Shown: positions 4,946-64,000 of the stretch, piece after piece
Layout: the number at the start of each line of letters is the position of its first letter
How positions within the stretch are numbered: position 1 is the stretch's first letter
Assembly: GCA_937120475.1 (NCBI GenBank)
Contig: CAKZJV010000007.1
Coordinates: forward strand, 2,000,068-2,064,067
Source: an uncultured Cryomorphaceae bacterium
GTDB lineage: Bacteria > Bacteroidota > Bacteroidia > Flavobacteriales > Schleiferiaceae
Direction: 5' to 3'
DNA: 64,000 nucleotides
Made by a program: the position numbers and the translations under genes
Notes under the pieces: model-generated
Seen by the model: the letters and a program-made list of their open reading frames with translations, nothing else
Told to the model about the DNA's origin: nothing
Database searches by the model: none

Positions 4946-4980
4946 ACTTTATAAACCCACGCTTACGCCCTATGGTTCAA

Positions 4981-5742
4981 TTAAAAATAAGCGGGTTTTA
5001 TCTTTTCACGGTTCTTAAAATAGCGGAAGAGCAACAGTAATATGCTGGCGATGGCGGTAGTGAGTATTACCGGATAGGGCAAAGGGTCAAGTACGTAACG
5101 CTGATAGATAATACCCCCAAAGGCCCATACCAGCACCAGGGTATAGAGTATATCGTTATTCAGATGCAGGATGTACAAACCGATCATGGTAGCCACCAGG
5201 ATTACCGCTGCCGTCCAGAAGTTGGGAGGCAAGCCCCAGGCATTCCAGCCGATATCCACCAGCAGCGTGGTGATATTGGCTACCGTGGCCACAGTGATCC
5301 AACCCAGGTAAATACTGAACGGAGCGTGCACGCAGTATTTTTCAGCAGGGCTTACCTTTCGTATGCCGATACCCAGGTTACGGTAAGCCTGCACCAGGCT
5401 GAAAAGCAATATCAACATGATAAAAACGCTCAGTACCATCATCCGATGGTGCCAGGCCAATATCCAGCCTGCGTTAGCCAGGCAGCTTACAAAAAACCAT
5501 AAACCAATGAGCTTCAGGCCTTCCGTTTTACGAAGGCTAGTGTAAACCACAAAGGCGAACAGGGCCAGGTAAATCACGGCCCAAATGGAAAAGGTAATAC
5601 CGGCCGGGGTGAAGAGGTTGGGGTACATATTGGAAAGCTCCCCGGTGGTATAGCCGTTAATGGGTAGCGCGTTGGCCAGGGCGTTAACGGTTACCACACC
5701 TATCCAGCCGGCAATATTCAACAGGGTAAGGGTACGATTCAT
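4981..5742 (-). CDS. TspO/MBR-like tryptophan-rich integral membrane protein
   Basis: About 253 residues with seven or so hydrophobic segments. The signature 'NLFTPAGITFSIWAVIY' is near the N-terminus and many Trp residues follow. It is longer than classical TspO (~160 residues) but matches the long tryptophan-rich sensory protein-like family seen in Bacteroidota and chloroplast-lineage organisms. The ATG at 5742 is chosen. An in-frame GTG at 5760 would add six residues, but no ribosome-binding signal precedes it, and AGGAG lies just before the ATG. The likely role is a tetrapyrrole- or light-stress-related membrane protein, an inference from the family. Confidence 0.75.
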   Translation of the reverse strand: MNRTLTLLNIAGWIGVVTVNALANALPINGYTTGELSNMYPNLFTPAGITFSIWAVIYLALFAFVVYTSLRKTEGLKLIGLWFFVSCLANAGWILAWHHRMMVLSVFIMLILLFSLVQAYRNLGIGIRKVSPAEKYCVHAPFSIYLGWITVATVANITTLLVDIGWNAWGLPPNFWTAAVILVATMIGLYILHLNNDILYTLVLVWAFGGIIYQRYVLDPLPYPVILTTAIASILLLLFRYFKNREKIKPAYF

Positions 5743-5783
5743 ACTCCTATCAACTTTCACCAGAGTGCAATGGTTTACAGTGT

Positions 5784-6788
5784 TTATTTATAGAGCCCTT
5801 TTTGGACCGGTTGCAGTAAAGCCGTAGCCGTTTCTTCCAGGGTGAGGCTACCCTCGTAATAGCGATCGAGGCATTTGCGGAATTCAGGGATATTGTAGTT
5901 GGAAAAAATAGACTTGGTTTCCATCATTAGCGTATGTTCCCGGTTTCGTTGCCGGAATTCGTCTTGCACCACTCTTCCGCAAAGGTAAAATTGAGCCGCA
6001 TGCCACAAGTTCCGGGGAAAAGGCACCTCCATTTCTTTACTTCGAAAGTAGATGATGGCGCGAAAATCACTTTCCCGCGAAAAAAGAAGGTGGGCGCTTT
6101 CGTGAAAAACGGTTTCCACCAGTGCCGTCTGTTGCGATAAAGGATCTAAGGTGGATATAAAAAGATTATCGCCCGCCCCGGGCGTATAGGCTCCCGCCCA
6201 GTTGGCGTAGGTCATCAGGTCCACCCGTACCTTAAGCTCGGGCCACTCCCCTCCGGCCAGCTCTGCCATTCGGGGTATTACCTCGTCTTCCATATCCTCA
6301 ATGGTAGCAAAATGTAAGGCCAGTGTCCGCTCATTTTGTAAGCGGTGAGCGGGCCAAAAATGTTGGCGGTACAACGGGGCAACGGAATTTAAAACCTCCA
6401 CCACGGAGTCGGGCACAATGCTATCCTTGTCCAGTAGAATACCTTCCTGCCTGCGCAAACTGAAGTTCCAGGCAGCGATGTCCACCAATAAGGATTTTTG
6501 AATGACGTTTTCACGGTAGTACTCAACGGAGCTCGTCAATAGCAGCCGCTCCTCTGCGTTCAGGGCTTCTGTTATTTCTGCTTCGCGGATATCGAGCAGG
6601 CTGAGGCCATCCTGTTCCATATGTGCAGCCTGGCTTCCTTTGGCCCGCTGGTATAGAAAATGGTGCAGGTTTAACCAAAAACTGCTGTGAAACTCGTAAT
6701 ACCTGGTTTCGTGAAGCAGTGAACGTCCGGGCTGGGCACTAACGGCTAAGTTTAAAAGGCAAAAAAGTAGTAGGAAACAGTATCTCAT
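5784..6788 (-). CDS. exported protein with HExxH zinc-protease-like motif
   Basis: 334 residues with a signal peptide ending ...LNLAVSA-Q (cleavage about residue 18). A zincin-type motif HESAH (229-233) sits in 'ALVETVFHESAHLLF', after a segment predicted to carry the sheet strand. This suggests a periplasmic or secreted gluzincin-like metallopeptidase, but I cannot assign a MEROPS family and no third ligand is certain. It lies between the TspO-like gene and an outer-membrane protein gene on the same strand. Function unknown. Confidence 0.6.
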   Translation of the reverse strand: MRYCFLLLFCLLNLAVSAQPGRSLLHETRYYEFHSSFWLNLHHFLYQRAKGSQAAHMEQDGLSLLDIREAEITEALNAEERLLLTSSVEYYRENVIQKSLLVDIAAWNFSLRRQEGILLDKDSIVPDSVVEVLNSVAPLYRQHFWPAHRLQNERTLALHFATIEDMEDEVIPRMAELAGGEWPELKVRVDLMTYANWAGAYTPGAGDNLFISTLDPLSQQTALVETVFHESAHLLFSRESDFRAIIYFRSKEMEVPFPRNLWHAAQFYLCGRVVQDEFRQRNREHTLMMETKSIFSNYNIPEFRKCLDRYYEGSLTLEETATALLQPVQKGLYK

Positions 6789-52854: not shown

Positions 52855-53529
52855 GTGCACCTAAAATCACTACCTCCAATCTTAGTTCTGATCACCAGTA
52901 TAGTTTTTGGCTCGGCTGCCGTGGCGCAACGAAATGCCATTCACCTGCACCTGGGCTACCACTACAATCCCAACAACTTTTACCTTTCTCCCGCTGAGCT
53001 GGACAGCTCCTTTTCACCTAACCAGGCACTGCGCTTTGGGGCACGCCTCAAGTACCAGTCTTTTTTCAATGAAAGTGCTAAATGGAGCTGGCACTTGCAG
53101 GCAGAATACAGTTACCGCTCACTATCCTACCAGTTTCAAACCCCTTTTACCGATAACCAGACTTTTAGAGGGGAATTGGAAGCGCGCTACCTGGACCTGG
53201 GCGGTGGTGTGGGCGAACGGTTTGACTTGCCCAAAGGGATTCGTCTGGGATGGTGCTTGTCGGCCATGGTGGGCTTTCCTCTACAATCCGATACGGCTAC
53301 CGTCCAAAATCAACCTTATCCCTACCGGAGAGCAACTGCTTATTTACCCTATTTTCAGTTAGGCTTGGTGGCCGAAAAGATCTTCAGCCAGGGTGAAAAA
53401 GGCCATTGGGTGGTGGGGGTTGAGCCTATCTTGAGGGCCTTCACCCGCCCGCTTCACCAAGGGGAGACGGAGCAGGGAATTTTTGGTGGCCTGGGTTTTA
53501 GCTTTGGCGTAGGCTACGTTTTTTACTAA
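52855..53529 (+). CDS. outer-membrane beta-barrel-like exported protein
   Basis: 224 residues. The GTG at 52855 is directly followed by the signal peptide HLKSLPPILVLITSIV...AVAQ. It has strand-rich repeats ('LGYHYNPNNFYL', 'WHLQAEYSYRSLSYQF', 'LEARYLDLGGGVGERF') and a terminal strand 'GFSFGVGYVFY', typical of 8-10-stranded barrels. Function unknown. It is divergent from comEC and is the last host-type gene before the integrative element. Confidence 0.65.
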   Translation: MHLKSLPPILVLITSIVFGSAAVAQRNAIHLHLGYHYNPNNFYLSPAELDSSFSPNQALRFGARLKYQSFFNESAKWSWHLQAEYSYRSLSYQFQTPFTDNQTFRGELEARYLDLGGGVGERFDLPKGIRLGWCLSAMVGFPLQSDTATVQNQPYPYRRATAYLPYFQLGLVAEKIFSQGEKGHWVVGVEPILRAFTRPLHQGETEQGIFGGLGFSFGVGYVFY

Positions 53530-53665
53530 CGGTAAAACAAAAAATATTCGTCAGGTTCATATAATACACTTTCGTAAATGCCTAAAACCCAAGTATAGCT
53601 AGTCCTTACAGTATTTTCGAACTCAGAAAACCTCTTACACATTTTTCCATTTTCTGCTATTTAAG

Positions 53666-53704: not shown

Positions 53705-54904
53705 ATGGTGACGGCTAAATTAGTTTTATGGACTTACCACAACCCAACAAAAAAGGGTTACCCAATAAAGGTTCTTGTTACAAAAAACCGAAAAACCAAA
53801 CCCTACAACTTAAAGCTCTATTCAAGTTTGGAAGATTGGAATACAGAAGCAATGGAACCTAAAAAGAGCCACCCGAGATATTTATTTGTAAGGAAACAGG
53901 TAAGGAAGATTAAAGGCCGCATTGAAGAGTTGTTAGAAGATGCGTATGACAAACGATGGTCTAAGGAACAATTTATCGAAGCTCTTGACGGGGCTGAACA
54001 ATCAAAAAAGTCAAGCCCTAAATTTTTTGAGTTTGGTGATAAAAGGGTGCAAGAGCTTAAAGATTCGGGAAGAAATGGTACGGCTAAAATGTACGCTTCC
54101 TGTTTAAGTATCCTACGGGCCTACAATTTGGGGCAGGACATTTCTATTGAGGATGTGAATTACACTTTTCTAAACAACTTCAAATTAGCAGAATTAAATA
54201 AAGGTACCTCCCCTAACTCATTGGGAACCTATCTAAAGATTTACAGAGCCATTTTTAACGAGGCTATTCACAGGTCACTTGTTACCAAAGAGAACTACCC
54301 TTTCTCCAGGGGATTAATTCCTAAGAAGACAAAGACCCCTAAAAGAAATATCAGCAAAGCAGACATAAAGAAACTTGAAGATGCCACAAACCTTTCCGGC
54401 AATCGCCTGCACGCCCGTAATTATTACCTGTTGATGTTTTACTTTGGAGGAATGGATTTGATTGACATTTCTAATCTCACCAAAGACCATCTTTCAAAAA
54501 ACAGAATAAAGTATTTCCGAACTAAGTTAGAAAATGGTGGAAATGAGATCGACCTTAAAGTATTCAAAAAAGCCAAAAAAATAATTGACTTTTATTCTGT
54601 AAATAATTCCAAATATTTATTTCCAATTACTAGTAGCTTAGAAAACTATGATGAATATTACCGGCAGTATAACGCAATAAAATATCACCTCAATAAATTA
54701 GGTCAAGAACTCGGCATAGAACTTAAGTTGACCAGTAAGACCGCGCGCCATAGCTTTTCAACTATTGGTAAACGCCTTTATACCGACCCGGAAATGCTCA
54801 AAGAGCTAATGGGCCATGAAGGCAACGAGGTAGCGGATGTTTACAAAGACCGGTTCCCACAAGCCGACCGCGATAAAGCCCACTGGAAGATCATTGAGAC
54901 TTAA
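53705..54904 (+). CDS. tyrosine recombinase (phage-type integrase)
   Basis: 399 residues. The N-terminal SAM-like/arm domain is followed by the catalytic domain. Arg348 in 'SKTARHSFSTIG', His371 in 'LMGHEGNEV' and nucleophile Tyr380 in 'DVYKDRF' are present. In the usual 'GLR' position the sequence is GGMD (in 'MFYFGGMDLIDIS'), so the first catalytic Arg is missing there, and the HxxR His is a Lys. Similar displacement has been reported for CTnDOT-type recombinases of Bacteroidota. It probably mediates integration and excision of the element that it borders. Base composition is AT-rich. Confidence 0.9.
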   Translation: MVTAKLVLWTYHNPTKKGYPIKVLVTKNRKTKPYNLKLYSSLEDWNTEAMEPKKSHPRYLFVRKQVRKIKGRIEELLEDAYDKRWSKEQFIEALDGAEQSKKSSPKFFEFGDKRVQELKDSGRNGTAKMYASCLSILRAYNLGQDISIEDVNYTFLNNFKLAELNKGTSPNSLGTYLKIYRAIFNEAIHRSLVTKENYPFSRGLIPKKTKTPKRNISKADIKKLEDATNLSGNRLHARNYYLLMFYFGGMDLIDISNLTKDHLSKNRIKYFRTKLENGGNEIDLKVFKKAKKIIDFYSVNNSKYLFPITSSLENYDEYYRQYNAIKYHLNKLGQELGIELKLTSKTARHSFSTIGKRLYTDPEMLKELMGHEGNEVADVYKDRFPQADRDKAHWKIIET

Positions 54905-56379
54905 GCCGGAACGAGCCATTGAACACTATTGAGCAACAGGTAATCACCATCGTTTAAAGGGTCGAGAGTGGTTACCTGTTCATTTTCAACTTTAACCCAA
55001 TGCAGGGCCGGGGTATCGGTATTATCCACGCGGGTTATTCCCTGTAGAACCGGATAGGGTGCGCTGTAGGCCACCGGAAAAGAAGCAATCACCTGACCGG
55101 CCTCAATGGTTCCCCCTGAATCATTGGCCAGGCCACCGGATATTTGAACCTGTAAGCCGTCCTGGACAATTTGCACCGGGTTGGCCGGGTATTTTTGGGA
55201 GGTTGGCCCGGCTGGTGCAACGGCAGCCCTGGACTGGTTGGTGTTATCCAGGTCAATCCAAGCCCCTTGTTCCCGTTTTTGCCCCTGTATCTGGCCATCA
55301 ACCACTTTAAAACGAAAAGAGCCATCCGTAGCCGGGTCACCAAAATAAAAATGATCGTTAAGGCCGACCTCAATATCACCAACTACATCCAGTTTGGACG
55401 AAGGGGTAAGGGTACCCAGGCCCATATCATAACCTACCGGAAAAACCACGGTGTTTTCCTGTTCGGGGGCGGTATCATTGCCCACTACAATGGTATTATT
55501 TACAGGCGGAAGGTCGCCAGGGTGTTCGCTTCCCACCGTATTGATTCGGTGACCAATATGGATAACATTGTCCGCTTGGAACCCGCCTTGCTGATCACGG
55601 GTAAAACCCGAATAAGTACCAATCAGAATACTTTTTTCAAGAGAACTATACAAACCGCTTTCAAAACCGATGGCCACCACATCTTTATGATCACCATTGG
55701 CCAGGGAAAGGGCATGACTTCCCAGCCCCAGGCAACGGGTATAATTGCGCCTTACCCCTCCAAAACTGCCCGTGGCCTTATTGATGCCCGCGAAGTTCCC
55801 GAAGAAACAGGAGCGGTAAATATGGTCGTTAAAACTGGCCGCAGATTGTCCCACCAGCAGGGAAGAATTGATTTTAAGAATATCCCGCCCCGCGCTGGAA
55901 CCCACAGCTACCATGCTGCCGCTGTCATCCAGGGCCGGGTTTTCCTGGTACTCTCCCGAGTAAGTCCGGGATTCACGGCCACTACCTGCTCCCAAAAGGG
56001 TACTTTGCGCACCTCCGAAATCCCGGCCCGCTCCATAACCGTAGAAGGCATTCACTCCATAAAGACCAGGATAAACCACCCCCTGGCCGCATTCTTCACC
56101 AATATATAGATTATAGCCCCCATCGTAAGCCCCGCCATTGTCCCCGCCATCGGAAACAAAACGCGCCCCCAGGATTTTCACAATATCGTCTTTGAGTTCC
56201 AGGGCATCGGAAACCTCCAAACCGTCTTCGGTAGGAGACACCACAAATACCTTGGTGGCGTTACCTGGGTAATCTCCGTTTACGTCCCCTAATTCCAAAA
56301 AGCCGGATTGCCAGCGTTGGCCTAAAATCCGCAGGGCTTCCAGGATATGATCGAATAAAGGTTTTTTAGGTGCTGCCAT
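54901..56379 (-). CDS. tail-fibre/spike-like protein of the element
   Basis: 492 residues with no signal peptide. The middle (~130-300) is a repetitive Gly/Ser/Ala-rich beta region ('LLGAGSGRES', 'VAVGSSAGRD', 'LGLGSHALSLANG', 'VAIGFESGLYS', 'ILIGTYSGF'). This spacing resembles trimeric-adhesin and phage-fibre head repeats. The segment 'TPSSKLDVVGDIEVG' (~335-350) is typical of fibre proteins in Bacteroidota phages. The C-terminal ~150 residues look like a beta-sandwich, perhaps for receptor binding. It would be the host-attachment or adhesion part. Last gene of the leftward operon, overlapping the holin-like gene by 14 bp. Confidence 0.65.
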   Translation of the reverse strand: MAAPKKPLFDHILEALRILGQRWQSGFLELGDVNGDYPGNATKVFVVSPTEDGLEVSDALELKDDIVKILGARFVSDGGDNGGAYDGGYNLYIGEECGQGVVYPGLYGVNAFYGYGAGRDFGGAQSTLLGAGSGRESRTYSGEYQENPALDDSGSMVAVGSSAGRDILKINSSLLVGQSAASFNDHIYRSCFFGNFAGINKATGSFGGVRRNYTRCLGLGSHALSLANGDHKDVVAIGFESGLYSSLEKSILIGTYSGFTRDQQGGFQADNVIHIGHRINTVGSEHPGDLPPVNNTIVVGNDTAPEQENTVVFPVGYDMGLGTLTPSSKLDVVGDIEVGLNDHFYFGDPATDGSFRFKVVDGQIQGQKREQGAWIDLDNTNQSRAAVAPAGPTSQKYPANPVQIVQDGLQVQISGGLANDSGGTIEAGQVIASFPVAYSAPYPVLQGITRVDNTDTPALHWVKVENEQVTTLDPLNDGDYLLLNSVQWLVPA

Positions 56380-56548
56380 GCTTACGGTTTGTTTTTGCTT
56401 TGTGATAGGATTTAATGCGTTTGGCGATGTTCCAGAAGCCGATCACCACGGCCATCAGGGCGGCCAGGAATTGCAGCCATACGGTGATACCCGCCAGGCT
56501 GATCAAAAGTGCTACGACCTGTACGGCCCAAAGAGTGCCTTTATCCAT
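56366..56548 (-). CDS. small two-helix membrane protein, holin-like
   Basis: 60 residues. Two hydrophobic segments (~6-24 and ~27-44) are separated by a short turn. The tail is strongly basic (AKRIKSYHKAKTNRKHGS). This matches the general form of class II holins, and the next upstream gene encodes an M23 peptidase, so a lysis pair is possible but not proven. It overlaps the fibre gene start by 14 bp. Confidence 0.5.
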   Translation of the reverse strand: MDKGTLWAVQVVALLISLAGITVWLQFLAALMAVVIGFWNIAKRIKSYHKAKTNRKHGST

Positions 56549-56551
56549 TGC

Positions 56552-57085
56552 TTAACCGAAATAAGGTTCCGGGTCAACCAGGATGCCCGCCAAACGGAGT
56601 TCCAGGTGAATATGTGGTGTAGCCCCCGGATAGCGTTCCCCAATATCCTGGGCTTTCCCTATAGGGTCACCCTTTCGGATGGTTTGCCCTTTGGAAACCG
56701 AAGGTTCCAAATAGAAAATTTTGACCGATACCCCCTTAAAATGCCCGGTGCCCAGGAGTAAAACGCCTTTCCAGGAATAGTCATCCCCGTAAGGGAAGGC
56801 CAGCCTTTTTACAATGCCGTCAATCGGGCTGAACACTTCCTGGCCTTTGGCGAGTTTAATGTCTAATCCTTTGTGTTTACCGGAACCCCGGGAAGCCCCA
56901 AAGTGTCCGCAACCTTTCGGGTCGCACTTTCGAAGCAGGTAAGGGAAAGAAGGGCGATTCATTAAGCGATTAGCCATCAACGCCTTTTCCAGTTTCTCCT
57001 TTTTCTTTCGTCTCGAAATCCAGAACATAACCAGGGTTGTAATTAGGATAAGGGCGGTTATAGCCCCAAAGAGCGCAGGCCGCAT
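56552..57085 (-). CDS. membrane-anchored M23 peptidase
   Basis: 177 residues. A membrane segment (~5-23) is followed by a basic stretch (SRRKKKEK), a linker with Cys54 and Cys59, and an M23/LytM domain: His71-x3-Asp75 in 'KHKGLDIK' and His158-x-His160 in 'PHIHLEL', the zinc ligands. It probably cuts peptidoglycan cross-links either for lysis or for entry of the element's particle. The N-in anchor topology is an inference. Confidence 0.85.
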   Translation of the reverse strand: MRPALFGAITALILITTLVMFWISRRKKKEKLEKALMANRLMNRPSFPYLLRKCDPKGCGHFGASRGSGKHKGLDIKLAKGQEVFSPIDGIVKRLAFPYGDDYSWKGVLLLGTGHFKGVSVKIFYLEPSVSKGQTIRKGDPIGKAQDIGERYPGATPHIHLELRLAGILVDPEPYFG

Positions 57086-57441
57086 TCAAATTGATTTAGT
57101 TGTACCAGTTCGGCTTTGGAGCCGTCCCCGAAAAATTTCACCGTCCAGCAGTCCGGCAACTTATTTTTCCAACCCCCGGTTTCGAAGATTTGCCAGGCCG
57201 CTGCATTGTATTTTTCGGTTTCGTTTAAGTCGAACCAGCGGGCATCCCAGCCGAGTTCTTCCCGTTCAGCCCAACCGTTAATGTTGCGTGTCCATTCCTG
57301 GATTGCATTTTCCCAGGCTTCCCGGATTTGCTGAGGGGAGGCGGTCATTTTGTTTTTCTTTTTCCCCAAAACCCCGGTGAAGTACAATACGATGACCAGG
57401 GCAATCACGCTTCCGGCAATGATGTAGGTCTTTTTGTTCAT
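57058..57441 (-). CDS. single-pass membrane protein with small soluble domain
   Basis: 127 residues. A membrane helix (~5-24, 'TYIIAGSVIALVIVLYFTG') is followed by a basic linker and an ~85-residue domain rich in Trp ('EAWENAIQEWTRNINGWAEREELGWDARWF'). Not recognised. It overlaps the M23 gene by 28 bp and follows the annexin-like gene by 2 bp. Confidence 0.55.
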   Translation of the reverse strand: MNKKTYIIAGSVIALVIVLYFTGVLGKKKNKMTASPQQIREAWENAIQEWTRNINGWAEREELGWDARWFDLNETEKYNAAAWQIFETGGWKNKLPDCWTVKFFGDGSKAELVQLNQFECGLRSLGL

Positions 57442-57443
57442 GC

Positions 57444-57935
57444 TTAGACTTGGTTTCGGTTAAACTCTGGTATATGGGCGAAGAAGCTGAGTGCTTTGGT
57501 TAGCTCGTCCCCGTCAAAATCATCGACTATCCATTCTCTGAGGTACACCCCGTTTACCCCGGAACAGTTGTTGGCCGGGTTGAGCCGGTCTAGTAATGTT
57601 TTACAAGGTGGCCTGCCATAGGTGGCATTAAAAGCATTGTGAACCACCGTTCTTTGATCTTCATTGAGGGGTTCCAGGAGAGAGAAAAAGCGGATTTCTG
57701 AGGTTCCGGCCCCCTTCATGGATTGGTAAAGGGCATCGGCCACAGGTTGGGGGTTAAAGTCTTCCGGTACATTGTCCCCGTTAAAGGAAGCATTGTACTT
57801 GGTCTGGTGGAAATCCTGAAGGTTTTTTTCCTCTCTGGCTTTCTGGCGTTTCCGGTACCAGTACCAACTGATTACCGCAAGGGCTATAATCACCAGGGTT
57901 ATCCATACCGCTTTATTTTTCAGTAGTTGTTGCAT
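57444..57935 (-). CDS. membrane-anchored annexin-like protein
   Basis: 163 residues. A membrane helix (~8-27) and basic segment are followed by a helical domain (~62-150) like one annexin repeat: 'ADALYQSMKGAGTSEIRFFSLLEPLNEDQRTVVHNAFNATYG' (motif; annexin KGxGT-E and 'DQR...Y...YG'). An insert with two Cys (111 and 124) splits the repeat. The acidic residue that completes a canonical annexin calcium site is not at the expected spacing. Annexin-like domains occur in some bacterial surface and phage-associated proteins; lipid contact is possible. Confidence 0.5.
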   Translation of the reverse strand: MQQLLKNKAVWITLVIIALAVISWYWYRKRQKAREEKNLQDFHQTKYNASFNGDNVPEDFNPQPVADALYQSMKGAGTSEIRFFSLLEPLNEDQRTVVHNAFNATYGRPPCKTLLDRLNPANNCSGVNGVYLREWIVDDFDGDELTKALSFFAHIPEFNRNQV

Positions 57936-58249
57936 TACAAGCCTGTGTTTATGCCGGTTAAAAATTCAAATTCATCGGTGGTCAGGTGGGGTACCAGGTC
58001 GGAGTAGGTATAAGAGCGTGAACTACCGCTGAGGGTTTCCTCTAAAATGAGGGGGTCAACCCCGTACAAAAGGGTGTTTTCGTTGATCTGCCCTTTTTGT
58101 ATTTCCGTAAGCCGTTTTCCGTTGGTGTTCATCTGCAAAAAAAGTTTGGAGCCGTTCTGAAGCAGAAAGGCCCATTGGGTTTGGTAGTAAAGCGGGCTGT
58201 AGGCCGAAGTGGTACTGACCTGGAAGGAAGTACCGCAAACACAATTCAT
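57935..58249 (-). CDS. small soluble protein of the element, unknown
   Basis: 104 residues with no leader or membrane helix. It starts MNCVCG and is followed by Thr/Ser/Tyr-rich strands ('SAYSPLYYQTQWAFLLQNGSKLFLQMN') and a C-terminal helix ('LTTDEFEFLTGI'). Not recognised. Ends at the first base of the annexin-like gene. Confidence 0.45.
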   Translation of the reverse strand: MNCVCGTSFQVSTTSAYSPLYYQTQWAFLLQNGSKLFLQMNTNGKRLTEIQKGQINENTLLYGVDPLILEETLSGSSRSYTYSDLVPHLTTDEFEFLTGINTGL

Positions 58250-58252
58250 GGC

Positions 58253-58525
58253 TCAGGCTTTAAAAGCAACGATGACCGCAATGGCCAGCACTACGGCAAT
58301 GATCACCCAGGTTTTATTGGTTTCCTCTTGTTTGGCCTTGTCGATATAGGCCGAGATAGTCCCGTAGCGGGCGGATTCCCTTTGAGCGGCTGCCAAATCA
58401 CGTTGGGCCTCGGCTGAAGCCCTTTGGTTGGAGAGAGCCTGTTTTTCCTCTTTGGTCAGGAAAAGATCATCAACAAACCCCAGGACAGGGCCAGCCACCG
58501 CCCCTAATATCGCGCCCAATGCCAT
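58253..58525 (-). CDS. small membrane protein of the element
   Basis: 90 residues. A Gly/Ala-rich N-terminal helix (~2-18), an Ala/Gln/Arg-rich helical middle ('ASAEAQRDLAAAQRESARYG') and a C-terminal membrane helix (~70-88) suggest a tail-anchored coiled protein. Not recognised. 3 bp after its neighbours on either side. Confidence 0.5.
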   Translation of the reverse strand: MALGAILGAVAGPVLGFVDDLFLTKEEKQALSNQRASAEAQRDLAAAQRESARYGTISAYIDKAKQEETNKTWVIIAVVLAIAVIVAFKA

Positions 58526-58528
58526 CGG

Positions 58529-58861
58529 TCAGGACTTTACCAGCATGAAAAAGACAATGACCAACAGGACAAATCCCCCCAGGATATACACCACCGTATT
58601 ATTGGTGGAGCTGGGGGGTGGGGCGTACCGGTCGGTGCCGGTATTGCCTCCTGAACTGCCGTCCGTGGCATTTCCCTTGGACGTTTGGAAAACCCCCAAT
58701 CCAAAATTCAGGAAGCTGTCTAGGCCATCGTTCCAGTCCCAGCCGGAGCCTTCGTGTGGTGATACGCCCCCTTGTCCGGTTTCAGCGGTAGCCGTGGTAC
58801 CGGTATCGCTATTTATGCCCTCTAAGGGGTCTTTAATGGTTCTGCTATCGGTTCGGGTCAT
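58529..58861 (-). CDS. small tail-anchored membrane protein of the element
   Basis: 110 residues. A Thr/Gly/Asp-rich, low-complexity N-terminal ~85 residues is followed by one C-terminal membrane helix ('TVVYILGGFVLLVIVFFML') and KS. Not recognised. 1 bp from the small gene upstream. Confidence 0.5.
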   Translation of the reverse strand: MTRTDSRTIKDPLEGINSDTGTTATAETGQGGVSPHEGSGWDWNDGLDSFLNFGLGVFQTSKGNATDGSSGGNTGTDRYAPPPSSTNNTVVYILGGFVLLVIVFFMLVKS

Positions 58862-58862
58862 T

Positions 58863-58970
58863 TTAGTTGCTTTTAATCAAAACGAGTATCATTAGGAGCA
58901 GGGCCACCGCTAAACGTAATACGGTGACCTCCTGCATAAAGCCGGATTTACGTTGGCAGGGGCAGCTCAT
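58863..58970 (-). CDS. 35-residue membrane peptide of the element
   Basis: ATG at 58970 to TAA at 58863-58865. It encodes MSCPCQRKSG...EVTVLRLAVALLLMILVLIKSN: a CxC at the start and one membrane helix (~17-32). It fits exactly in the 112-bp space between two operon genes, with 3-bp gaps, as an intact frame in the operon direction. This makes it likely a real gene despite its size. Confidence 0.5.
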   Translation of the reverse strand: MSCPCQRKSGFMQEVTVLRLAVALLLMILVLIKSN

Positions 58971-58973
58971 ATC

Positions 58974-59498
58974 TTACCCGTTTTTTTGTCCCTGGATTTC
59001 ACGGGCGGCTACGGCAGCCACGTTGAAAATCCCGTCAATTTCCATTGTCAGGGTGAGGGTAGAACCAGGCACTACCGGGATTTCCATTTTGGTTTGGTCA
59101 TCCAGTTGTACGGCCCTGCGCACGGTTACCACGTTATCCTTTTGGGTGTACTCATCGGTAAACTGAGAAAGGGCAATGTTCTCATCCCCCAGGTTACGGA
59201 ACGGGCTGTCCCTTCTCAGGTTAAGGATGACTTCGGTTTGTTCGCTGGAATTGGATTTGAATTTCATTTTACGCACCGACACGGGGTTGCGCTCGATGAA
59301 GTTCAGAAAGTGTTCGATTTGTCCGGGGGAGCCTGCCCCGTTCAGTGAGGTAATGCCCTCGCCATCTTCTTTGGCCTGGAAATCCCCATCGGTCACAATG
59401 CCGGTTTCAGCTTTTAGGCCGCGCCCTAAAATGAAGGTGCGGGTTTCGGTGGCGTGGGTGTTTCGGATGGTTAGGGTGTAGGGTCTTATGTTTTTCAT
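58974..59498 (-). CDS. beta-rich structural-like protein of the element
   Basis: 174 residues, no leader or membrane helix, mixed beta pattern with 'RPYTLTIRNTHATETRTFILG', 'VRKMKFKSNSSEQTEVILNLRRD', 'PVVPGSTLTLTMEIDGIF'. Strand-rich composition and lack of a leader would suit a single jelly-roll-like virion or scaffold protein. That is a guess; nothing in it is diagnostic. It is second in the operon after the membrane protein at 59519. Confidence 0.4.
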   Translation of the reverse strand: MKNIRPYTLTIRNTHATETRTFILGRGLKAETGIVTDGDFQAKEDGEGITSLNGAGSPGQIEHFLNFIERNPVSVRKMKFKSNSSEQTEVILNLRRDSPFRNLGDENIALSQFTDEYTQKDNVVTVRRAVQLDDQTKMEIPVVPGSTLTLTMEIDGIFNVAAVAAREIQGQKNG

Positions 59499-59518
59499 AT
59501 TCCTTTAGAGTTTTGGTT

Positions 59519-59674
59519 TTAGGAGGTTTCCCGGTCAACGTTCAGTGTTTCCTTTTCATGGCCTATGGAACCATCGGGGTAGAACTTGACTTTTTTAAAG
59601 ACCAGGGCCGCAATCAGTTTTACGATCAGGCTAGCGATGACAATGGAGACAATCATTTTCCAGTTTACACTCAT
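59519..59674 (-). CDS. small membrane protein, first gene of the leftward operon
   Basis: 51 residues from the ATG at 59674. One membrane helix (~7-26, 'MIVSIVIASLIVKLIAALVF') is followed by a hydrophilic tail ('KKVKFYPDGSIGHEKETLN'). The in-frame upstream start at 59701 would add nine non-hydrophobic residues and overlap the promoter. A perfect -7 element (TAGGTTTG on the minus strand, 59699-59706) lies 24 nt upstream. Not recognised. Confidence 0.55.
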   Translation of the reverse strand: MSVNWKMIVSIVIASLIVKLIAALVFKKVKFYPDGSIGHEKETLNVDRETS

Positions 59675-59698
59675 ACTTTTTTGGATTGTATTGGAGGG

Positions 59699-59706
59699 CA
59701 AACCTA
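59699..59706 (-). promoter_or_regulatory. -7 element of the leftward element operon (TAGGTTTG)
   Basis: On the minus strand TAGGTTTG matches TAnnTTTG exactly, 24 nt before the ATG at 59674. A TTTTTG ends 23 nt upstream of it, a little further than the usual ~19-21 nt. It is probably the single promoter for the whole packed operon. Confidence 0.5.
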
Positions 59707-59814: not shown

Positions 59815-60060
59815 ATGGACCGTCAAGAAACACAACGTAACACCCAGGAAGTTTTCAATTTTGTTTGGGGAAGAAGCCTTAGTAATTCGATACTGCTAAG
59901 GGCCTTAAAAGAGCATTATGTGCGCGCACTAGCTGAGATAACGGGGAAAACGGAAGGTGAAATAAAAGGTGAACTGGACATTATCATCGAAAATAAAAAA
60001 GAGGAATTCGAGAAGGAAAAGCAAGAATTTTTAGCAAAAAATGATAAAAGTATGAACTAA
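59815..60060 (+). CDS. small acidic/helical protein, unknown
   Basis: 81 residues, no leader. Helical N-terminal half with Trp/Leu ('FVWGRSLSNSILLRALKEHYV') and a highly charged C-terminal coil ('IIIENKKEEFEKEKQEFL'). It is divergent from the leftward operon and could be the element's regulator or a host gene. AT-rich. No HTH is obvious. Not recognised. Confidence 0.5.
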   Translation: MDRQETQRNTQEVFNFVWGRSLSNSILLRALKEHYVRALAEITGKTEGEIKGELDIIIENKKEEFEKEKQEFLAKNDKSMN

Positions 60061-60128: not shown

Positions 60129-63100
60129 ATGCAAAAAATATACTTAGCAGCCCTGCTTTCAATGGGATTTTTCACGGTTTCAAATGCTCAGATCACCAGC
60201 GAAGCCGAATTACAAAGCCAAATGATGGTTCCTACCTATGGGATAGGTGAAATATTTGAAGCGGGTGACACTCTTTACCCACCCGATACCACTACCCAGG
60301 AAGGGAAGAAAGCATACTACCGTTGGAGGTATCGGATAGAAGGTCGCAATACCTATCCGGGAGTCACGCGAAGTTCAACGGTGTATGATCTGGCCAATTA
60401 TCTGCTTACCACGGATTACTATACCTTTTGTAACCAGGGGCCTTCCAGTGCTCCCTGGACGGAAGTAGGTCCGGACCCACAACCCGGAGACAGGCAGGCC
60501 ATTGGCCTGATCAGTACGGTAGTTGCCGACCCCAATAACCATAACACCATTTACGTTGGTACGGTAGAATCCGGGATATACAAAACCACTGATGGCGGGA
60601 CCACCTGGATTAACATGCTTGAAAATACCAGTTTGGGCACAATGGCTGGTTTAGGCATCGCTCATATTGAAATGGACCCGAACGACCCTAATACCCTCTT
60701 GGTGGGAGTAATCACCCATTCCTTCAATATACCCAGTGACTGGGCTGGCACTAAAAAAGGCTTTGGCGTGTTGAAAACTACCGATGGTGGGCAAAGCTGG
60801 AGCGTAGGAGAGTGGATAGGAGGTAATGACGATTATTGGTATGTGCAGAAAATCATGTATCACCCTACTAATTCCAATATCGCGGTGGCCATTGGTAATA
60901 AAACCATTTACAAAACCACCAATGGCGGGGATGATTGGAATTTGGTATATACCAATCCTACTCAGGAGCGATCTATTTTCATTGACATTGAATACAATCT
61001 GAGCAACCCCAATATTGTAATGGCTTCTACACGTCTGATCGGTGAGGGGTTGCTGAATGTAAGCAATCATGCGGCCCAGGTGTTCAGCTCCACCAATAGC
61101 GGTAATTTGGGAAGCTGGAACGAGGTGATACTGCCGACCCCCACACAAAGCGATTCTGGCTGGGCTGCGGGCATAGCGATGGACGTATCCCCTGCCGACC
61201 CTTCCCAGGTGTATTTACTCTACACCAATTATTGGGGGCTTCAATCCAATAACCGATGGCATGATTATGAGCATAATCACCTTCTGAAAACCCCGGATGG
61301 CGGTCAGAGTTGGGTCCTGGTGATGGATACAGTCATGAAAAATTTTGCCAATCCGTATAGCTTGATGGCCTACCGGTTTAATGGTGGTTTCCGGGAGTTT
61401 GAACTCTCTGATCACGACCCTGCAACATTATATATCGGTGGTTTCAAATTTGCCAAATCCATCAATAGTGGAGCTACTTATGATCATGGGCCGTATAGGT
61501 ATGCTCCGCCCGATCAGTTTACACATGGTGATGTGCGTGACATACACAACCTCGGATATATCAATGGAGAAGATCAATTCCTGATTGCCAATGACGGAGG
61601 TTTGAGCAAAACCGAGAATAGCGGACAGAGTTTCAGCAACCTCAATGGTACTGGCCTTGGCATCGCTCAGTTTTTTGGTTTTGATGTGTATCGCGGCTTT
61701 GATGAGCGGCTGATTGGCGGAGCCATACATAATGGTATTTCAGTGAAACGGCCCCAGGGGTGGCTTTTATTCCGGCACGGAGGAGATGGGGACTGGAGCG
61801 AGATTGATCACCTTGCCGGAGAGGAAGAAGATACCACCTATGGGGTTATTAACGGTGATTTTGAAATTTTTATTCACCAGGGTGCAATAGAAGTAAATGA
61901 TACTCTGTACGCCAGGCAACCCTCGGGCTTATACTTTTACCGGGGCCAGAAGCTGATGATGGACCCTGCCAACCACAACCGGGTTTACCACTTAGCTAAA
62001 GACATTAACCGTTATGACAGGCGCAGCAATTCATGGGTGACCTACTTTAATGCCCCTTCCAACCGGGATGCCAATAGCGGGGTATCGGCCCTGGCCTTCG
62101 CTCCCTCCGACCTTGATCGGGCCTATGTAGCCTACCAGGGAATTTCCTGGGGAGATCCCATAAGCCAACGTTTTTTCCGCACTTCCAACGGAGGCAGTTC
62201 CTGGCTGGATATTACCGACCGGATTACCTACAACAACTCCACCACCATTTACACTTGGACCTGGATTAGCGATATTGTAGTTGACCCCCAGGATGCCAAC
62301 CACCTTTTTGTGTCCATTAAAAACTACGGTAAAGATGGTGCCAACCCCAGCCAGGGGAAATTCCGGGTTATGGAGTCCACCGATGCCGGAAATACCTGGA
62401 CCGATATATCCACCGGCTTAAAACCCATTCCGGTAAACGACCTGGAGTACATTGAAGGAACCGATGACCTTATTTTTGCCGCTACCGATGCCGGAGTATA
62501 TTACTGGGACAAACCCAACCAAACCTGGCAGTGCTTCAGTAATAGCCTACCCAATGCCATTGCCATTAACCTGGAACACAACCGCTGCACCCAGGAGCTG
62601 TACGTATCTACCCAGGGCCGGGGTATATGGAAAGTGGATATGAAAGGTTGGCTAAGACCCCAGCACCATATTTATGACTACACGGTATGGGACTACGACC
62701 GCTTTATGGATGGCGATATCATCGTTCACCCCAATGCCGAACTGTACATCAGTGCCAAAATACACCTGGGCCATGATGCCCGTATCCTCATCGAACCCAA
62801 CGGCAGGTTGGTTTTAAAGAATAAAGGCATACTCACCTCCGGCAACTGTAACGAAAACTGGAGCGGTATATGGATGGAAGGCCAGAGCAGCCAACCCCAA
62901 CAGACTGCCTACCAGCCCAAACTCATCCTGGAGCCCGGCTCTGTAATTGAATATGCCGAACAGGCCATAAATACCACTGCACCGCCCACCGGCAGCAATT
63001 GGGTGGTTTGGGGAACCCAGGGAGGTATCATAGATGCGGAAGGAGCCGTTTTTCGCAACAACACCCGCGATGTTAACCTGCTTTCCTATACCTCACCCAC

Positions 63101-64000
63101 CAACCAGGCTTATAAAGCCAGCTTTAAAAACTGCGAGTTTGAACGCGATTCCAACTACCGCAACCCCTCACTGATGGCCCACATTAGTATGATGGGAGTA
63201 GAAGGGGTGCTTCTTCAAGGCAACCGGTTCAACTTCGATATAAGCAACCAGCCTGCTTTTAAAGATAACGGGGAAGGCATTTACGCCCTCAATGCTACCT
63301 TTATTTGCGACCGGAGCAGCACCAATAATGCTTCTTTTAGTGGCTACCGCGATGCCATCCGTGCCCGGAATGTATTATGCGCCAATACGGCCCGGCCCAT
63401 TGAAATTAACCGGACGGTTTTCAATGATAACACGCATAGCATTTACCTGAGCGAGGCCCAATACGCCAAAGTAAGCCACAACTCAGTACACGTGCCCAAT
63501 GTGGCCGTACACACCCACATCAACGCCCCGGCAGTGTTCCAGCCTGCCCTTTACGGTATCTACATGGACGGTTGCCAGGATTTCCAACTGTATGAGAACG
63601 TTTTGTTTACCGATGGGCAAAACGGGGCCATTGAAACCACCGGTTTGATTATCAAGAATTCCGGGCCGGTGGCCACCGAAGTCTATCGGAATATTATTGA
63701 CGGCTTTACCGTGGGCCTGGAAGCCATTGGTAGAAACCGTGATGCCGGGCTAACGGATGTTGGGCTGCGATTGAAGTGCAATGATATAGGCTACGTCAAA
63801 GGGAATGAATACGATGTGTTCATTGCCCAAGCTAATAGCCACCCGGAAAACGGAATACAGGTATTTCAAGGAAAGCCAAACATTTTCTCTGGAGCCGAAC
63901 TGCCTAATAACTTGTTTACCCCTAATGGCAAACCCTTTACTAGTAATTTCCAGAATGAAGAGAATAGTAGTGTGGCTTATTATTATGGACAGGGAAATAT
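60129..64000 (+). CDS. very large BNR/sortilin-type exported protein (3' part outside window)
   Basis: Open from the ATG at 60129 to the window edge (about 1290 residues seen, no stop). A signal peptide (MQKIYLAALLSMGFFTVSNAQ, shortened) is followed by a propeller with Asp-box motifs: TTDGGTTW, TTDGGQSW, TTNGGDDW, TPDGGQSW, TSNGGSSW and STDAGNTW. From ~residue 840 the sequence changes to a beta-helix-like part ('NPNGRLVLKNKGILTS', 'FNDNTHSIYLSEAQYAKVSHNSV'). A T9SS domain may follow beyond the edge. It is probably a surface protein related to the 17.9-21.2 kb propeller protein. Confidence 0.85.
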   Translation, partial: MQKIYLAALLSMGFFTVSNAQITSEAELQSQMMVPTYGIGEIFEAGDTLYPPDTTTQEGKKAYYRWRYRIEGRNTYPGVTRSSTVYDLANYLLTTDYYTFCNQGPSSAPWTEVGPDPQPGDRQAIGLISTVVADPNNHNTIYVGTVESGIYKTTDGGTTWINMLENTSLGTMAGLGIAHIEMDPNDPNTLLVGVITHSFNIPSDWAGTKKGFGVLKTTDGGQSWSVGEWIGGNDDYWYVQKIMYHPTNSNIAVAIGNKTIYKTTNGGDDWNLVYTNPTQERSIFIDIEYNLSNPNIVMASTRLIGEGLLNVSNHAAQVFSSTNSGNLGSWNEVILPTPTQSDSGWAAGIAMDVSPADPSQVYLLYTNYWGLQSNNRWHDYEHNHLLKTPDGGQSWVLVMDTVMKNFANPYSLMAYRFNGGFREFELSDHDPATLYIGGFKFAKSINSGATYDHGPYRYAPPDQFTHGDVRDIHNLGYINGEDQFLIANDGGLSKTENSGQSFSNLNGTGLGIAQFFGFDVYRGFDERLIGGAIHNGISVKRPQGWLLFRHGGDGDWSEIDHLAGEEEDTTYGVINGDFEIFIHQGAIEVNDTLYARQPSGLYFYRGQKLMMDPANHNRVYHLAKDINRYDRRSNSWVTYFNAPSNRDANSGVSALAFAPSDLDRAYVAYQGISWGDPISQRFFRTSNGGSSWLDITDRITYNNSTTIYTWTWISDIVVDPQDANHLFVSIKNYGKDGANPSQGKFRVMESTDAGNTWTDISTGLKPIPVNDLEYIEGTDDLIFAATDAGVYYWDKPNQTWQCFSNSLPNAIAINLEHNRCTQELYVSTQGRGIWKVDMKGWLRPQHHIYDYTVWDYDRFMDGDIIVHPNAELYISAKIHLGHDARILIEPNGRLVLKNKGILTSGNCNENWSGIWMEGQSSQPQQTAYQPKLILEPGSVIEYAEQAINTTAPPTGSNWVVWGTQGGIIDAEGAVFRNNTRDVNLLSYTSPTNQAYKASFKNCEFERDSNYRNPSLMAHISMMGVEGVLLQGNRFNFDISNQPAFKDNGEGIYALNATFICDRSSTNNASFSGYRDAIRARNVLCANTARPIEINRTVFNDNTHSIYLSEAQYAKVSHNSVHVPNVAVHTHINAPAVFQPALYGIYMDGCQDFQLYENVLFTDGQNGAIETTGLIIKNSGPVATEVYRNIIDGFTVGLEAIGRNRDAGLTDVGLRLKCNDIGYVKGNEYDVFIAQANSHPENGIQVFQGKPNIFSGAELPNNLFTPNGKPFTSNFQNEENSSVAYYYGQGN

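What the first reader, a model, noticed from the sequence alone, without database searches (positions are those of the whole stretch)
53705..59706. Integrative element with an operon of mostly short membrane proteins and no recognisable virion or replication genes
Seen: one recombinase gene converging on eleven packed genes. Seven encode proteins of 35-177 residues with one or two membrane helices, plus an M23 peptidase, an annexin-like protein, a fibre-like protein and a beta-rich 174-residue protein. Inference: this could be a membrane-containing or very small phage, a satellite that borrows its capsid, or an undescribed envelope-targeting system. The absence of terminase, portal, Rep and packaging ATPase argues against an ordinary prophage, unless parts lie elsewhere.
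Basis: partly seen in the sequence, partly recalled or inferred. Interest (0 to 1): 0.72.

Follow-up and report, generated by a model that had tools for sequence, protein, structure and literature searches.

The report
Dormant tailless membrane phage, half hidden
The window holds the front part of a 20.9-kb dormant bacterial virus, probably a tailless one with an inner membrane and only distantly related to known phages; the copying and packaging genes that seemed to be missing lie just beyond the window's edge.

Summary
The gene list is right, but the window cuts the element off. In a same-genus genome the two flanking genes touch around one TAACGGTAAAA; here they lie 20.9 kb apart with that 11-mer at both ends (window 53527; 74408 in extended numbering). 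The island holds the reported integrase and operon, two cargo genes for secreted proteins, and a second minus-strand operon outside the window with a rolling-circle Rep, SSB, a P-loop ATPase whose best PHROG family is (weakly) that of PM2 packaging ATPase P9, and an LPD1 protein. In the first operon, o90 (58253-58525) falls in the family of P23-77 virion protein VP19. A 15.5-kb relative in a Bacteroidales MAG shares Rep (39%), SSB and the operon-into-integrase layout and carries a FLiP-type lysin. Best reading: a complete or near-complete provirus of an undescribed lineage of tailless, probably membrane-containing Bacteroidota phage, with cargo. No capsid protein is proven: o174 (58974-59498) is the candidate by place and size, but no relatives were found and no usable model was obtained. 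Capsid genes of the FLiP, PM2 or P23-77 kind were not found by sequence.

The parts
53526..53537 (.). attL core CTAACGGTAAAA (TAACGGTAAAA shared with attR at 74408 in extended window numbering = G000:C7:2074475, and with the single copy in the empty site of G002)
53705..54904 (+). tyrosine integrase, 399 aa
   Evidence: Pfam SAM_5, Phage_integrase, Arm_5; PHROG integrase 1.1e-22
54901..56379 (-). o492, fibre-like protein, probable receptor-binding spike or fibre (by composition and place; no family match)
   Evidence: no family match beyond E 0.16 and no phage match
56366..56548 (-). o60b, membrane protein 60 aa
   Evidence: not scanned against family libraries
56552..57085 (-). o177, N-terminal membrane anchor plus M23 peptidase domain; probable virion-associated or lysis peptidoglycan hydrolase
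   Evidence: strongest listed phage match Salicola phage CGphi29 42%
57058..57441 (-). o127, N-terminal membrane helix, W-rich domain
   Evidence: only weak family matches (best PHROG 0.0048)
57444..57935 (-). o163, N-terminal membrane helix plus annexin-like stretch
   Evidence: (PF00191 1.5e-4, below cut-off); no relatives
57935..58249 (-). o104, soluble, unknown
58253..58525 (-). o90, coiled stretch plus C-terminal membrane helix; in the P23-77 VP19 family (phrog_35387)
58529..58861 (-). o110, C-terminal membrane helix
58863..58970 (-). o35, membrane peptide 35 aa
   Evidence: not scanned against family libraries
58974..59498 (-). o174, beta-rich by appearance; candidate major capsid protein by place and size only
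   Evidence: no relatives; model unusable:
59519..59701 (-). o60, membrane protein 60 aa (TTG start as listed), first gene of the operon
59815..60060 (+). 81-aa ORF of unknown function between the operon and the cargo
60129..64000 (+). cargo: first part of a large BNR-repeat-type protein (name by reading; runs to 65243 in extended numbering), followed outside the window by a 509-aa T9SS-sorted protein (65288-66817). The second phage operon (LEA-like r145, HTH-like, LPD1 protein, basic ~50-aa, ATPase, 184, 74, 73, SSB, Rep, 150, 92, 89 aa) lies at 66824-73242 and attR at 74407-74418, all outside the window

Best explanation
The operon is the structural half of an integrated provirus of 20.9 kb (about 14.2 kb of it without two cargo genes). 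SHOWN: (1) an integrative element with 11-12-bp core repeats at both ends and an empty site in a same-genus genome; (2) by sequence, its own integrase, an HUH-type Rep, SSB, a P-loop ATPase whose best PHROG family is that of the PM2 packaging ATPase, a membrane-anchored M23 hydrolase, many short membrane proteins and a VP19-like membrane protein; (3) a related provirus with the same layout. INFERRED: the integrase inserts the circular phage DNA into the 11-bp core at the junction of two convergent genes; after induction Rep nicks and replicates the circle by rolling circle and SSB protects the single strands. The structural operon then builds a tailless icosahedral particle with an inner membrane filled with the small membrane proteins, the ATPase drives the genome in (unlike FLiP, where no ATPase is known), the fibre-like protein serves as vertex spike, and the M23 enzyme opens peptidoglycan on entry or exit. 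o174 is the most likely shell protein. The two secreted cargo proteins would be made by the lysogen.
For: Empty site and att. Second operon: (SSB 3e-18; Rep_1 2.7e-4, below its cut-off; LPD1 8.3e-12). The relative's Rep passes the Rep_1 cut-off (36.3 against 33.2 bits) and is 39% identical to ours, sharing the HUH residues. ATPase: best PHROG is phrog_2666, 2.4e-4, the family that PM2 P9 matches at 2.6e-50. It also aligns over 148 columns, Walker A onwards, with the P23-77/IN93 ATPases, hhalign probability 57%. o90: best PHROG phrog_35387, 4.4e-6, matched by VP19 of P23-77 and its IN93 counterpart at 8e-50 and 4.7e-49; hhalign probability 94%, E 1.3e-7; among 5347 frames of 54 loci only those two matched at E <= 0.5, and none of 20 shuffles nor the reversed o90 matched anything. 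Relative L053: integrase converging on the operon, 20-bp terminal repeats, 15.5 kb; its SLT lysin with a C-terminal membrane helix (by reading) aligns with FLiP gp14 over 87% of its length at 38.5%, E 2e-23.
Against: No capsid protein is proven: o174 has no relative in the other 59 of 60 genomes or the other 394 of 395, in viral contigs, phages or PDB sequences, and no similarity to P23-77 VP16/VP17 or to FLiP, phiCjT23 or PM2 capsid proteins. Its AF2 model has pLDDT 42, that of the ATPase 33. The ATPase match is weak: Pfam gives only generic AAA_24 and AAA_14 below their cut-offs, with no FtsK- or HerA-type model, and the nearest PDB sequences, at E 0.46 and above, are signal-recognition-particle proteins. 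L053 shows no such ATPase (Walker A scan). VP19 itself also resembles a holin family, so o90 need not be a virion protein. The M23 is close to a protein of a tailed phage, and the LPD1 protein matches LPD-type proteins of tailed phages and, at 1.1e-4, a PHROG labelled minor head protein. The two operons are separated by 6.7 kb of cargo; that they are one virus rests on shared ends, shared strand and partial synteny with L053. The LEA-like proteins of the two elements are not significantly alike pairwise (z 1.5), nor are the structural genes. Only one genome shows the empty site.
Confidence: 0.7

Rival explanations
1. A phage satellite: integrates and replicates by itself but is packaged in a helper's capsid, with the membrane proteins as envelope modifiers.
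For: No proven capsid gene; small size.
Against: Own Rep, SSB and packaging-type ATPase; long operon of membrane proteins with a P23-77-type VP19 relative, not expected if the shell is borrowed from a tailed phage.
Confidence: 0.13
2. A filamentous-phage-like element: HUH Rep, SSB, many short single-helix proteins (coats) and a P-loop protein acting as the assembly motor.
For: Rep and SSB; one-helix peptides of 35-60 aa.
Against: Pfam scans at E <= 1 listed no filamentous-phage motor family; the ATPase has no membrane-helix-like stretch and its best PHROG is the PM2 P9 family; M23 hydrolase and VP19-like protein point to an icosahedral membrane virion.
Confidence: 0.07
3. A non-viral integrative plasmid with an envelope-targeting or secretion operon.
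For: Rolling-circle Rep and SSB are also plasmid genes (recalled); most operon proteins are unknown; secreted cargo.
Against: No match of its Rep in 72,556 plasmid records at E <= 0.01; of 10 island proteins scanned against PADLOC only the P-loop protein had a match, E 0.0042; two island products fall in virion/packaging families; the relative carries a FLiP-type lysin.
Confidence: 0.08
4. A decayed or part-replaced tailed prophage.
For: M23 42% identical to a protein of tailed phage CGphi29; LPD1 protein with relatives in tailed phages; weak PHROG matches to head, neck or tape-measure families, such as r303 to a 'minor head protein' family at 1.1e-4.
Against: No convincing portal, tail or HK97-type capsid match in the proteins scanned; no interrupted ORF was noticed in the two operons; intact ends.
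Confidence: 0.02

Closest known systems
Finnlakeviridae (FLiP, FLiP-2), phiCjT23 and the 'FLiP group' of Yutin et al. 2018 (PMC5894146)
   Same: Bacteroidota hosts (ours inferred), rolling-circle Rep, several short membrane proteins, occurrence as proviruses; SSB in some members (figure legend, PMC5894146 section 15). The relative L053 carries a FLiP gp14-type lysin.
   Different: No FLiP- or phiCjT23-like capsid protein detectable by sequence; that group's Rep is M13-like (PMC5894146), ours is Rep_1-type; FLiP has no putative packaging ATPase (PMC5894146), ours has a P-loop one; phiCjT23-like proviruses have XerC/XerD dif-type ends (PMC9719478), ours its own integrase; ours is larger than FLiP and phiCjT23 (14.2 kb plus cargo).
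Corticoviridae (PM2)
   Same: ATPase best matches the PM2 P9 PHROG family; replication by a nicking protein; ATPase upstream of a structural operon with very short proteins.
   Different: No P2-like capsid similarity; P1 and the P12 Rep are not among the convincing pairs there either.
Matsushitaviridae (P23-77, IN93)
   Same: VP19-family membrane protein; the order '170-aa protein, C-terminal-helix protein, VP19' is similar; IN93 also has an integrase.
   Different: Two single-jelly-roll capsid proteins (VP16, VP17) define it; neither is detectable here. Host Thermus.
Provirus L053 (Bacteroidales MAG, JAGNBV010000007.1)
   Same: Rep 39%, SSB, LEA-like protein before the structural operon, operon converging on a tyrosine integrase (25% identical to ours), terminal repeats.
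   Different: Structural genes not convincingly alike by sequence; 246-aa and 126-aa candidate capsid proteins; SLT instead of M23 lysin; no ATPase seen.

Membership tests
[quoted passage not shown]
   o174 shows no sequence similarity to FLiP gp8 or phiCjT23 gp5; these proteins diverge beyond sequence detection, and no usable structure model exists.
Finnlakeviridae / FLiP group | M13-like replication initiator | tested here: not met
   Rep matches Pfam Rep_1 (2.7e-4; the relative 5.4e-9, above cut-off), with no M13-like model listed; our Rep with FLiP gp15 or phiCjT23 gp3 is not among the top-scoring pairs, and the relative's Rep with phiCjT23 gp3 has z 0.7.
Finnlakeviridae / FLiP group | internal membrane, circular ssDNA in the virion | not testable with these tools
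   Needs particles.
Corticoviridae (PM2) | packaging ATPase of the P9 kind | tested here: inconclusive
   Best PHROG shared with P9, but weak for ours (2.4e-4); direct pair z 3.9.
Corticoviridae (PM2) | P2-type double-jelly-roll capsid protein | tested here: inconclusive
   No sequence similarity of o174; sequence alone cannot exclude the fold.
Matsushitaviridae (P23-77) | two single-jelly-roll capsid proteins related to VP16 and VP17 | tested here: not met
   hhalign of o174 with VP16 and VP17 profiles: probability 0.3% and 0.1%; no convincing match of an operon protein to either.
Matsushitaviridae (P23-77) | VP19-like membrane protein | tested here: met
Integrative element (provirus) | integrase, direct repeats at the ends, empty site in a relative | tested here: met
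Inoviridae-like | membrane-bound assembly motor and coat peptides | tested here: inconclusive
   No Pfam match to such a motor listed at E <= 1; ATPase without membrane-helix-like stretch; short one-helix peptides do occur.
Tailed phage (Caudoviricetes) | terminase, portal, HK97 capsid, tail genes | tested here: not met
   No convincing match among the proteins scanned: of 11 first-operon products 8 against Pfam and 9 against PHROGs, and 10 second-operon products against both. The ATPase's PHROG is labelled 'terminase large subunit' but is the PM2 P9 family; weak head/neck/tape-measure labels occur (for example r303, 1.1e-4). The smallest ORFs and the 74-aa product were not scanned.

The most novel reading that the evidence does not exclude
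A new family of tailless, membrane-containing phages whose shell is built from one short single-jelly-roll protein (o174), with a PM2-type packaging motor, a P23-77-type membrane protein and a plasmid-type rolling-circle Rep. Such a virus would resemble the postulated state before the capsid-gene duplication that gave double-jelly-roll and two-protein shells.
Probability: 0.15. Interest if true: 0.85.

Novelty: new variant of a known kind. Interest (0 to 1): 0.55.

Why it matters
Membrane-containing tailless phages of Bacteroidota are known from few isolates (FLiP, FLiP-2, phiCjT23 in the papers seen), and their proviruses are easily missed because the capsid proteins diverge beyond sequence detection (inference). 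This element can be bounded to the base, has an empty site in a relative and one related provirus, and resembles parts of three different known groups. If particles form, it would test how packaging motors, replication genes and membrane proteins are swapped among these viruses and whether one-barrel shells exist. It would also be a provirus of this kind that carries two genes for large secreted proteins between its replication and structural halves.

Tried and rejected
I still ran Foldseek and VIA-align on the o174 model although the tool warns that low-confidence models give meaningless matches. No match had E <= 0.001; the rows shown are mostly influenza haemagglutinins, and the best Z is 4.4 (an agarase); I give this no weight. 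Two plant-virus coat proteins also appear at Z about 3, equally without weight.

Relatives sought without success: o174 (viral contigs, phages 8, 60 genomes 7, 395 genomes 39: own genome only), M23 (viral contigs 12; one search hit 32 of 60 genomes, own included, but the others lie in frames of 255-598 aa at E 9.5e-11 or weaker and I judged them ordinary M23 proteins without looking at their neighbours), o163 (88 genomes 15: own only; genome contigs 16, viral contigs 109), o90/VP19 profile (viral contigs 38; phages 28 gave one match at E 1), o492 (phages 14), ATPase (viral contigs 57, phages 59; 5 of 395 at E <= 0.01, own genome plus four partial matches at 0.003-0.007 that I do not count as relatives), Rep (viral contigs 62 and 74, phages 60 and 76, plasmids 75, 395 genomes 72: own only), phrog_35387 in 395 genomes (own only; 1 of 14 controls, Thermus composti), L053 246-aa protein (phages 67, viral contigs 68, PDB 103). 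One relative in all: L053. The contig-collection scans use exact short patterns and miss distant relatives.

Ideas dropped: o163 as homologue of FLiP gp11 or phiCjT23 gp12 (same anchor-plus-domain build by eye, but pairwise z 0.3 with FLiP gp11, and no annexin match for either protein). An att repeat at 59.6-60.2 kb: nothing above shuffles, which led to looking further out. In the pairwise tables z up to about 8 occurs for short coiled or membrane proteins (for example the 51-aa L053 protein with P23-77 ORF18, 7.8, and o90 with ORF18, 6.5), so I rely only on the lysin pair (48.7) and o90-VP19 (10.7). Known structured RNA near the right end: none at E <= 1. Defence system: none convincing. On print: searches listed 0, 6, 18, 23, 3 and 6 papers; none shows this combination by title or by the start of its abstract, while FLiP-like and phiCjT23-like proviruses are in print. 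Supplements were not read, so I make no wider claim of absence.

Full report
OBSERVATION. The window has an integrase gene (53705-54904, +) meeting a block of eleven tightly packed minus-strand ORFs (54901-59701). Pfam confirms the integrase and the M23 domain; the annexin-like match is below the curated cut-off. Eight of eleven operon products have a helix-like hydrophobic stretch. So the described genes exist.

EXTENT. The gene left of the integrase (224 aa, ends 53529) has a homologue in one of the two other genomes of the genus searched, G002. There it is followed at once by a gene that I read as nadD, the two converging. In the window's own genome the nadD homologue (91%) lies at C7:2074477, 20.9 kb away. 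The G002 junction holds one TAACGGTAAAA; our left junction has it at window 53527 and our right junction at C7:2074475 (74408 in extended window numbering). The alignments of our left and right flanks to G002 (E 7e-5 next to the junction, and 3e-161) overlap by exactly these 11 bases. A 12-base match between the two ends compares with at most 10 in 997 random pairs. The island, both repeats included, is 20,892 bp. This is an integrated element with an empty site, known from one genome.

CONTENTS BEYOND THE WINDOW. From the window outwards (extended numbering): a large protein with BNR-like repeats and a T9SS-like tail, both by reading (60129-65243, +), and a 509-aa protein with a T9SS sorting tail (65288-66817, +; TIGR04183 1.5e-9). 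Then a second minus-strand operon, 66824-73242: a 145-aa LEA-like membrane protein; a short HTH-like ORF; a 303-aa LPD1 protein (8.3e-12); a very basic ORF of about 50 aa; a 186-aa P-loop ATPase; 184-, 74- and 73-aa proteins; SSB (3e-18); a 534-aa Rep; 150-, 92- and 89-aa proteins (the two short ORFs by reading). Then a stretch of about 600 bases without convincing ORFs and with inverted repeats, a short lipoprotein-like ORF (by reading), and attR. Homologues of the BNR/509 pair stand side by side in G002 too, at another place and without island genes among the searched ones, so I treat the pair as host-derived cargo. Without it the element is 14.2 kb.

REPLICATION. The Rep matches Rep_1 at 2.7e-4, below the cut-off. 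Its one relative, in a Bacteroidales MAG (L053), is 39% identical and passes the Rep_1 cut-off; the two share an H-I-H-x-H motif and a Tyr within IKYHFKND, as expected of HUH endonucleases (family knowledge recalled). With SSB this fits rolling-circle replication.

PACKAGING. Among 38,880 PHROG families the ATPase fits phrog_2666 best, at 2.4e-4. PM2 P9, the phage's packaging ATPase (recalled; annotated as terminase large subunit in the record), belongs to that family at 2.6e-50. With P23-77/IN93 ATPases hhalign aligns 148 columns including Walker A, the ALLVFED strand and the FVFHS strand, at 57% probability. Against: Pfam lists only generic AAA models below cut-off, and PDB sequences give nothing better than E 0.46. 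This is suggestive, not conclusive.

VIRION. o90 fits phrog_35387 best (4.4e-6), which VP19 of P23-77 and its IN93 counterpart match at 8e-50 and 4.7e-49. A control over 5347 frames of 54 loci found only those two, and 20 shuffles and the reversed sequence found nothing at E <= 0.5. VP19 itself also shows similarity to a holin family, so relatives of it may not all be virion proteins. P23-77 has a 173-aa capsid protein VP16, a 291-aa VP17, a protein with a C-terminal helix (by reading), then VP19. Here a 174-aa protein, a 35-aa peptide, a protein with a C-terminal helix, then the VP19 relative follow each other. That places o174 where a capsid gene could be, but sequence gives no support: profiles of VP16 and VP17 do not match, nor do FLiP, phiCjT23 or PM2 capsid proteins, and the structure model is unusable.

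THE RELATIVE. L053 is a provirus of 15.5 kb bounded by 20-bp direct repeats, with a 16-bp repeat just inside each end, HTH-like gene(s) (by reading) at one end and an integrase at the other meeting the operon head-on. It shares Rep, SSB (2.5e-16) and a LEA-type membrane protein (Pfam LEA_2 1.4e-6 there; only 0.068 for ours; pairwise not significant) between replication and structural genes. Its structural genes are not convincingly similar to ours: of the 20 top pairs tested by shuffling the highest z is 5.9, o163 with a 57-aa membrane protein. Its lysin, with a C-terminal membrane helix (by reading), aligns with FLiP gp14 over 87% of its length at 38.5%; the catalytic part alone is also common in tailed phages (185 records in that call, FLiP included). 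It has a 246-aa and a 126-aa protein in the place where FLiP-like phages carry capsid genes; phiCjT23 has a 239-aa double-jelly-roll protein, called the smallest known (PMC9719478, passages read). No sequence similarity links them. It shows no ATPase: in its genome the best match to ours is E 0.015, on another contig, and a Walker A scan of L053 found only two unconvincing motifs in one transglutaminase-like protein; 100 bases of L053 are masked.

HOW IT WORKS. Shown: integration at a short core between two convergent genes, and, by sequence, a self-encoded recombinase, replication genes and a packaging-type ATPase. Inferred: excision, rolling-circle replication, assembly of a tailless icosahedral particle around a membrane containing the short membrane proteins, ATPase-driven packaging, adsorption by the fibre-like protein and peptidoglycan opening by the M23 enzyme. 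Whether the packaged form is single- or double-stranded is open: the ATPase points to double-stranded as in PM2, Rep/SSB and host range to single-stranded as in FLiP.

KNOWN RELATIVES. The FLiP group has M13-like Reps, contigs up to 17 kb, SSB in some maps and no putative ATPase in FLiP (PMC5894146, abstract, passages and section 15 read). FLiP-like sequences in Sphingobacteriia genomes and a metagenome-assembled phage are reported in PMC13269007 (passages read). phiCjT23-like proviruses have dif-like ends (PMC9719478, outline with abstract and passages read). [quoted passage not shown] Our element shares single features with each group and fails, or cannot be shown to have, the capsid feature of any. 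I therefore file it as a new variant of tailless membrane phages, not as a member of a named family.

VERDICT. The finding was worth the second look. What remains new is the lineage, its mix of parts and its capsid protein, which stays unidentified.

Noticed in passing
window 60129-64000 and L050:1-4885: Homologues of the BNR-type protein and the 509-aa T9SS-sorted protein also stand side by side in G002 at another place (C7:112 kb), which suggests that a provirus moved or captured a host secretion gene pair.
   Followed up: partly
L050:11310-11916: A stretch of about 600 bases without convincing ORFs and with an 18-nt and a 9-nt inverted repeat, upstream of the Rep operon; candidate replication origin. 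No Rfam match at E <= 1.
   Followed up: partly
L050:5340-5490 and 6403-6557: Two short unlisted ORFs: one HTH-like, one of about 50 aa that is extremely rich in Lys/Arg, like small basic proteins of FLiP (gp7) and of L053 (51 aa); by reading only.
   Followed up: no
L050:5491-6402: LPD1 protein with 19 phage records matched at E <= 0.001; the 12 listed are Escherichia and Stx-type tailed phages at about 29% identity.
   Followed up: partly
L090 reverse complement 4507-5769: A second recombinase-like gene (420 aa, by reading) lies just outside the right repeat of the L053 provirus, which suggests a neighbouring element.
   Followed up: no
window 56552-57085: Among the 40 of 198 phage records listed, the M23 domain is closest to a protein of the tailed Salicola phage CGphi29 (42% identity, 7e-21), hinting at lysin exchange across virus groups.
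   Followed up: partly
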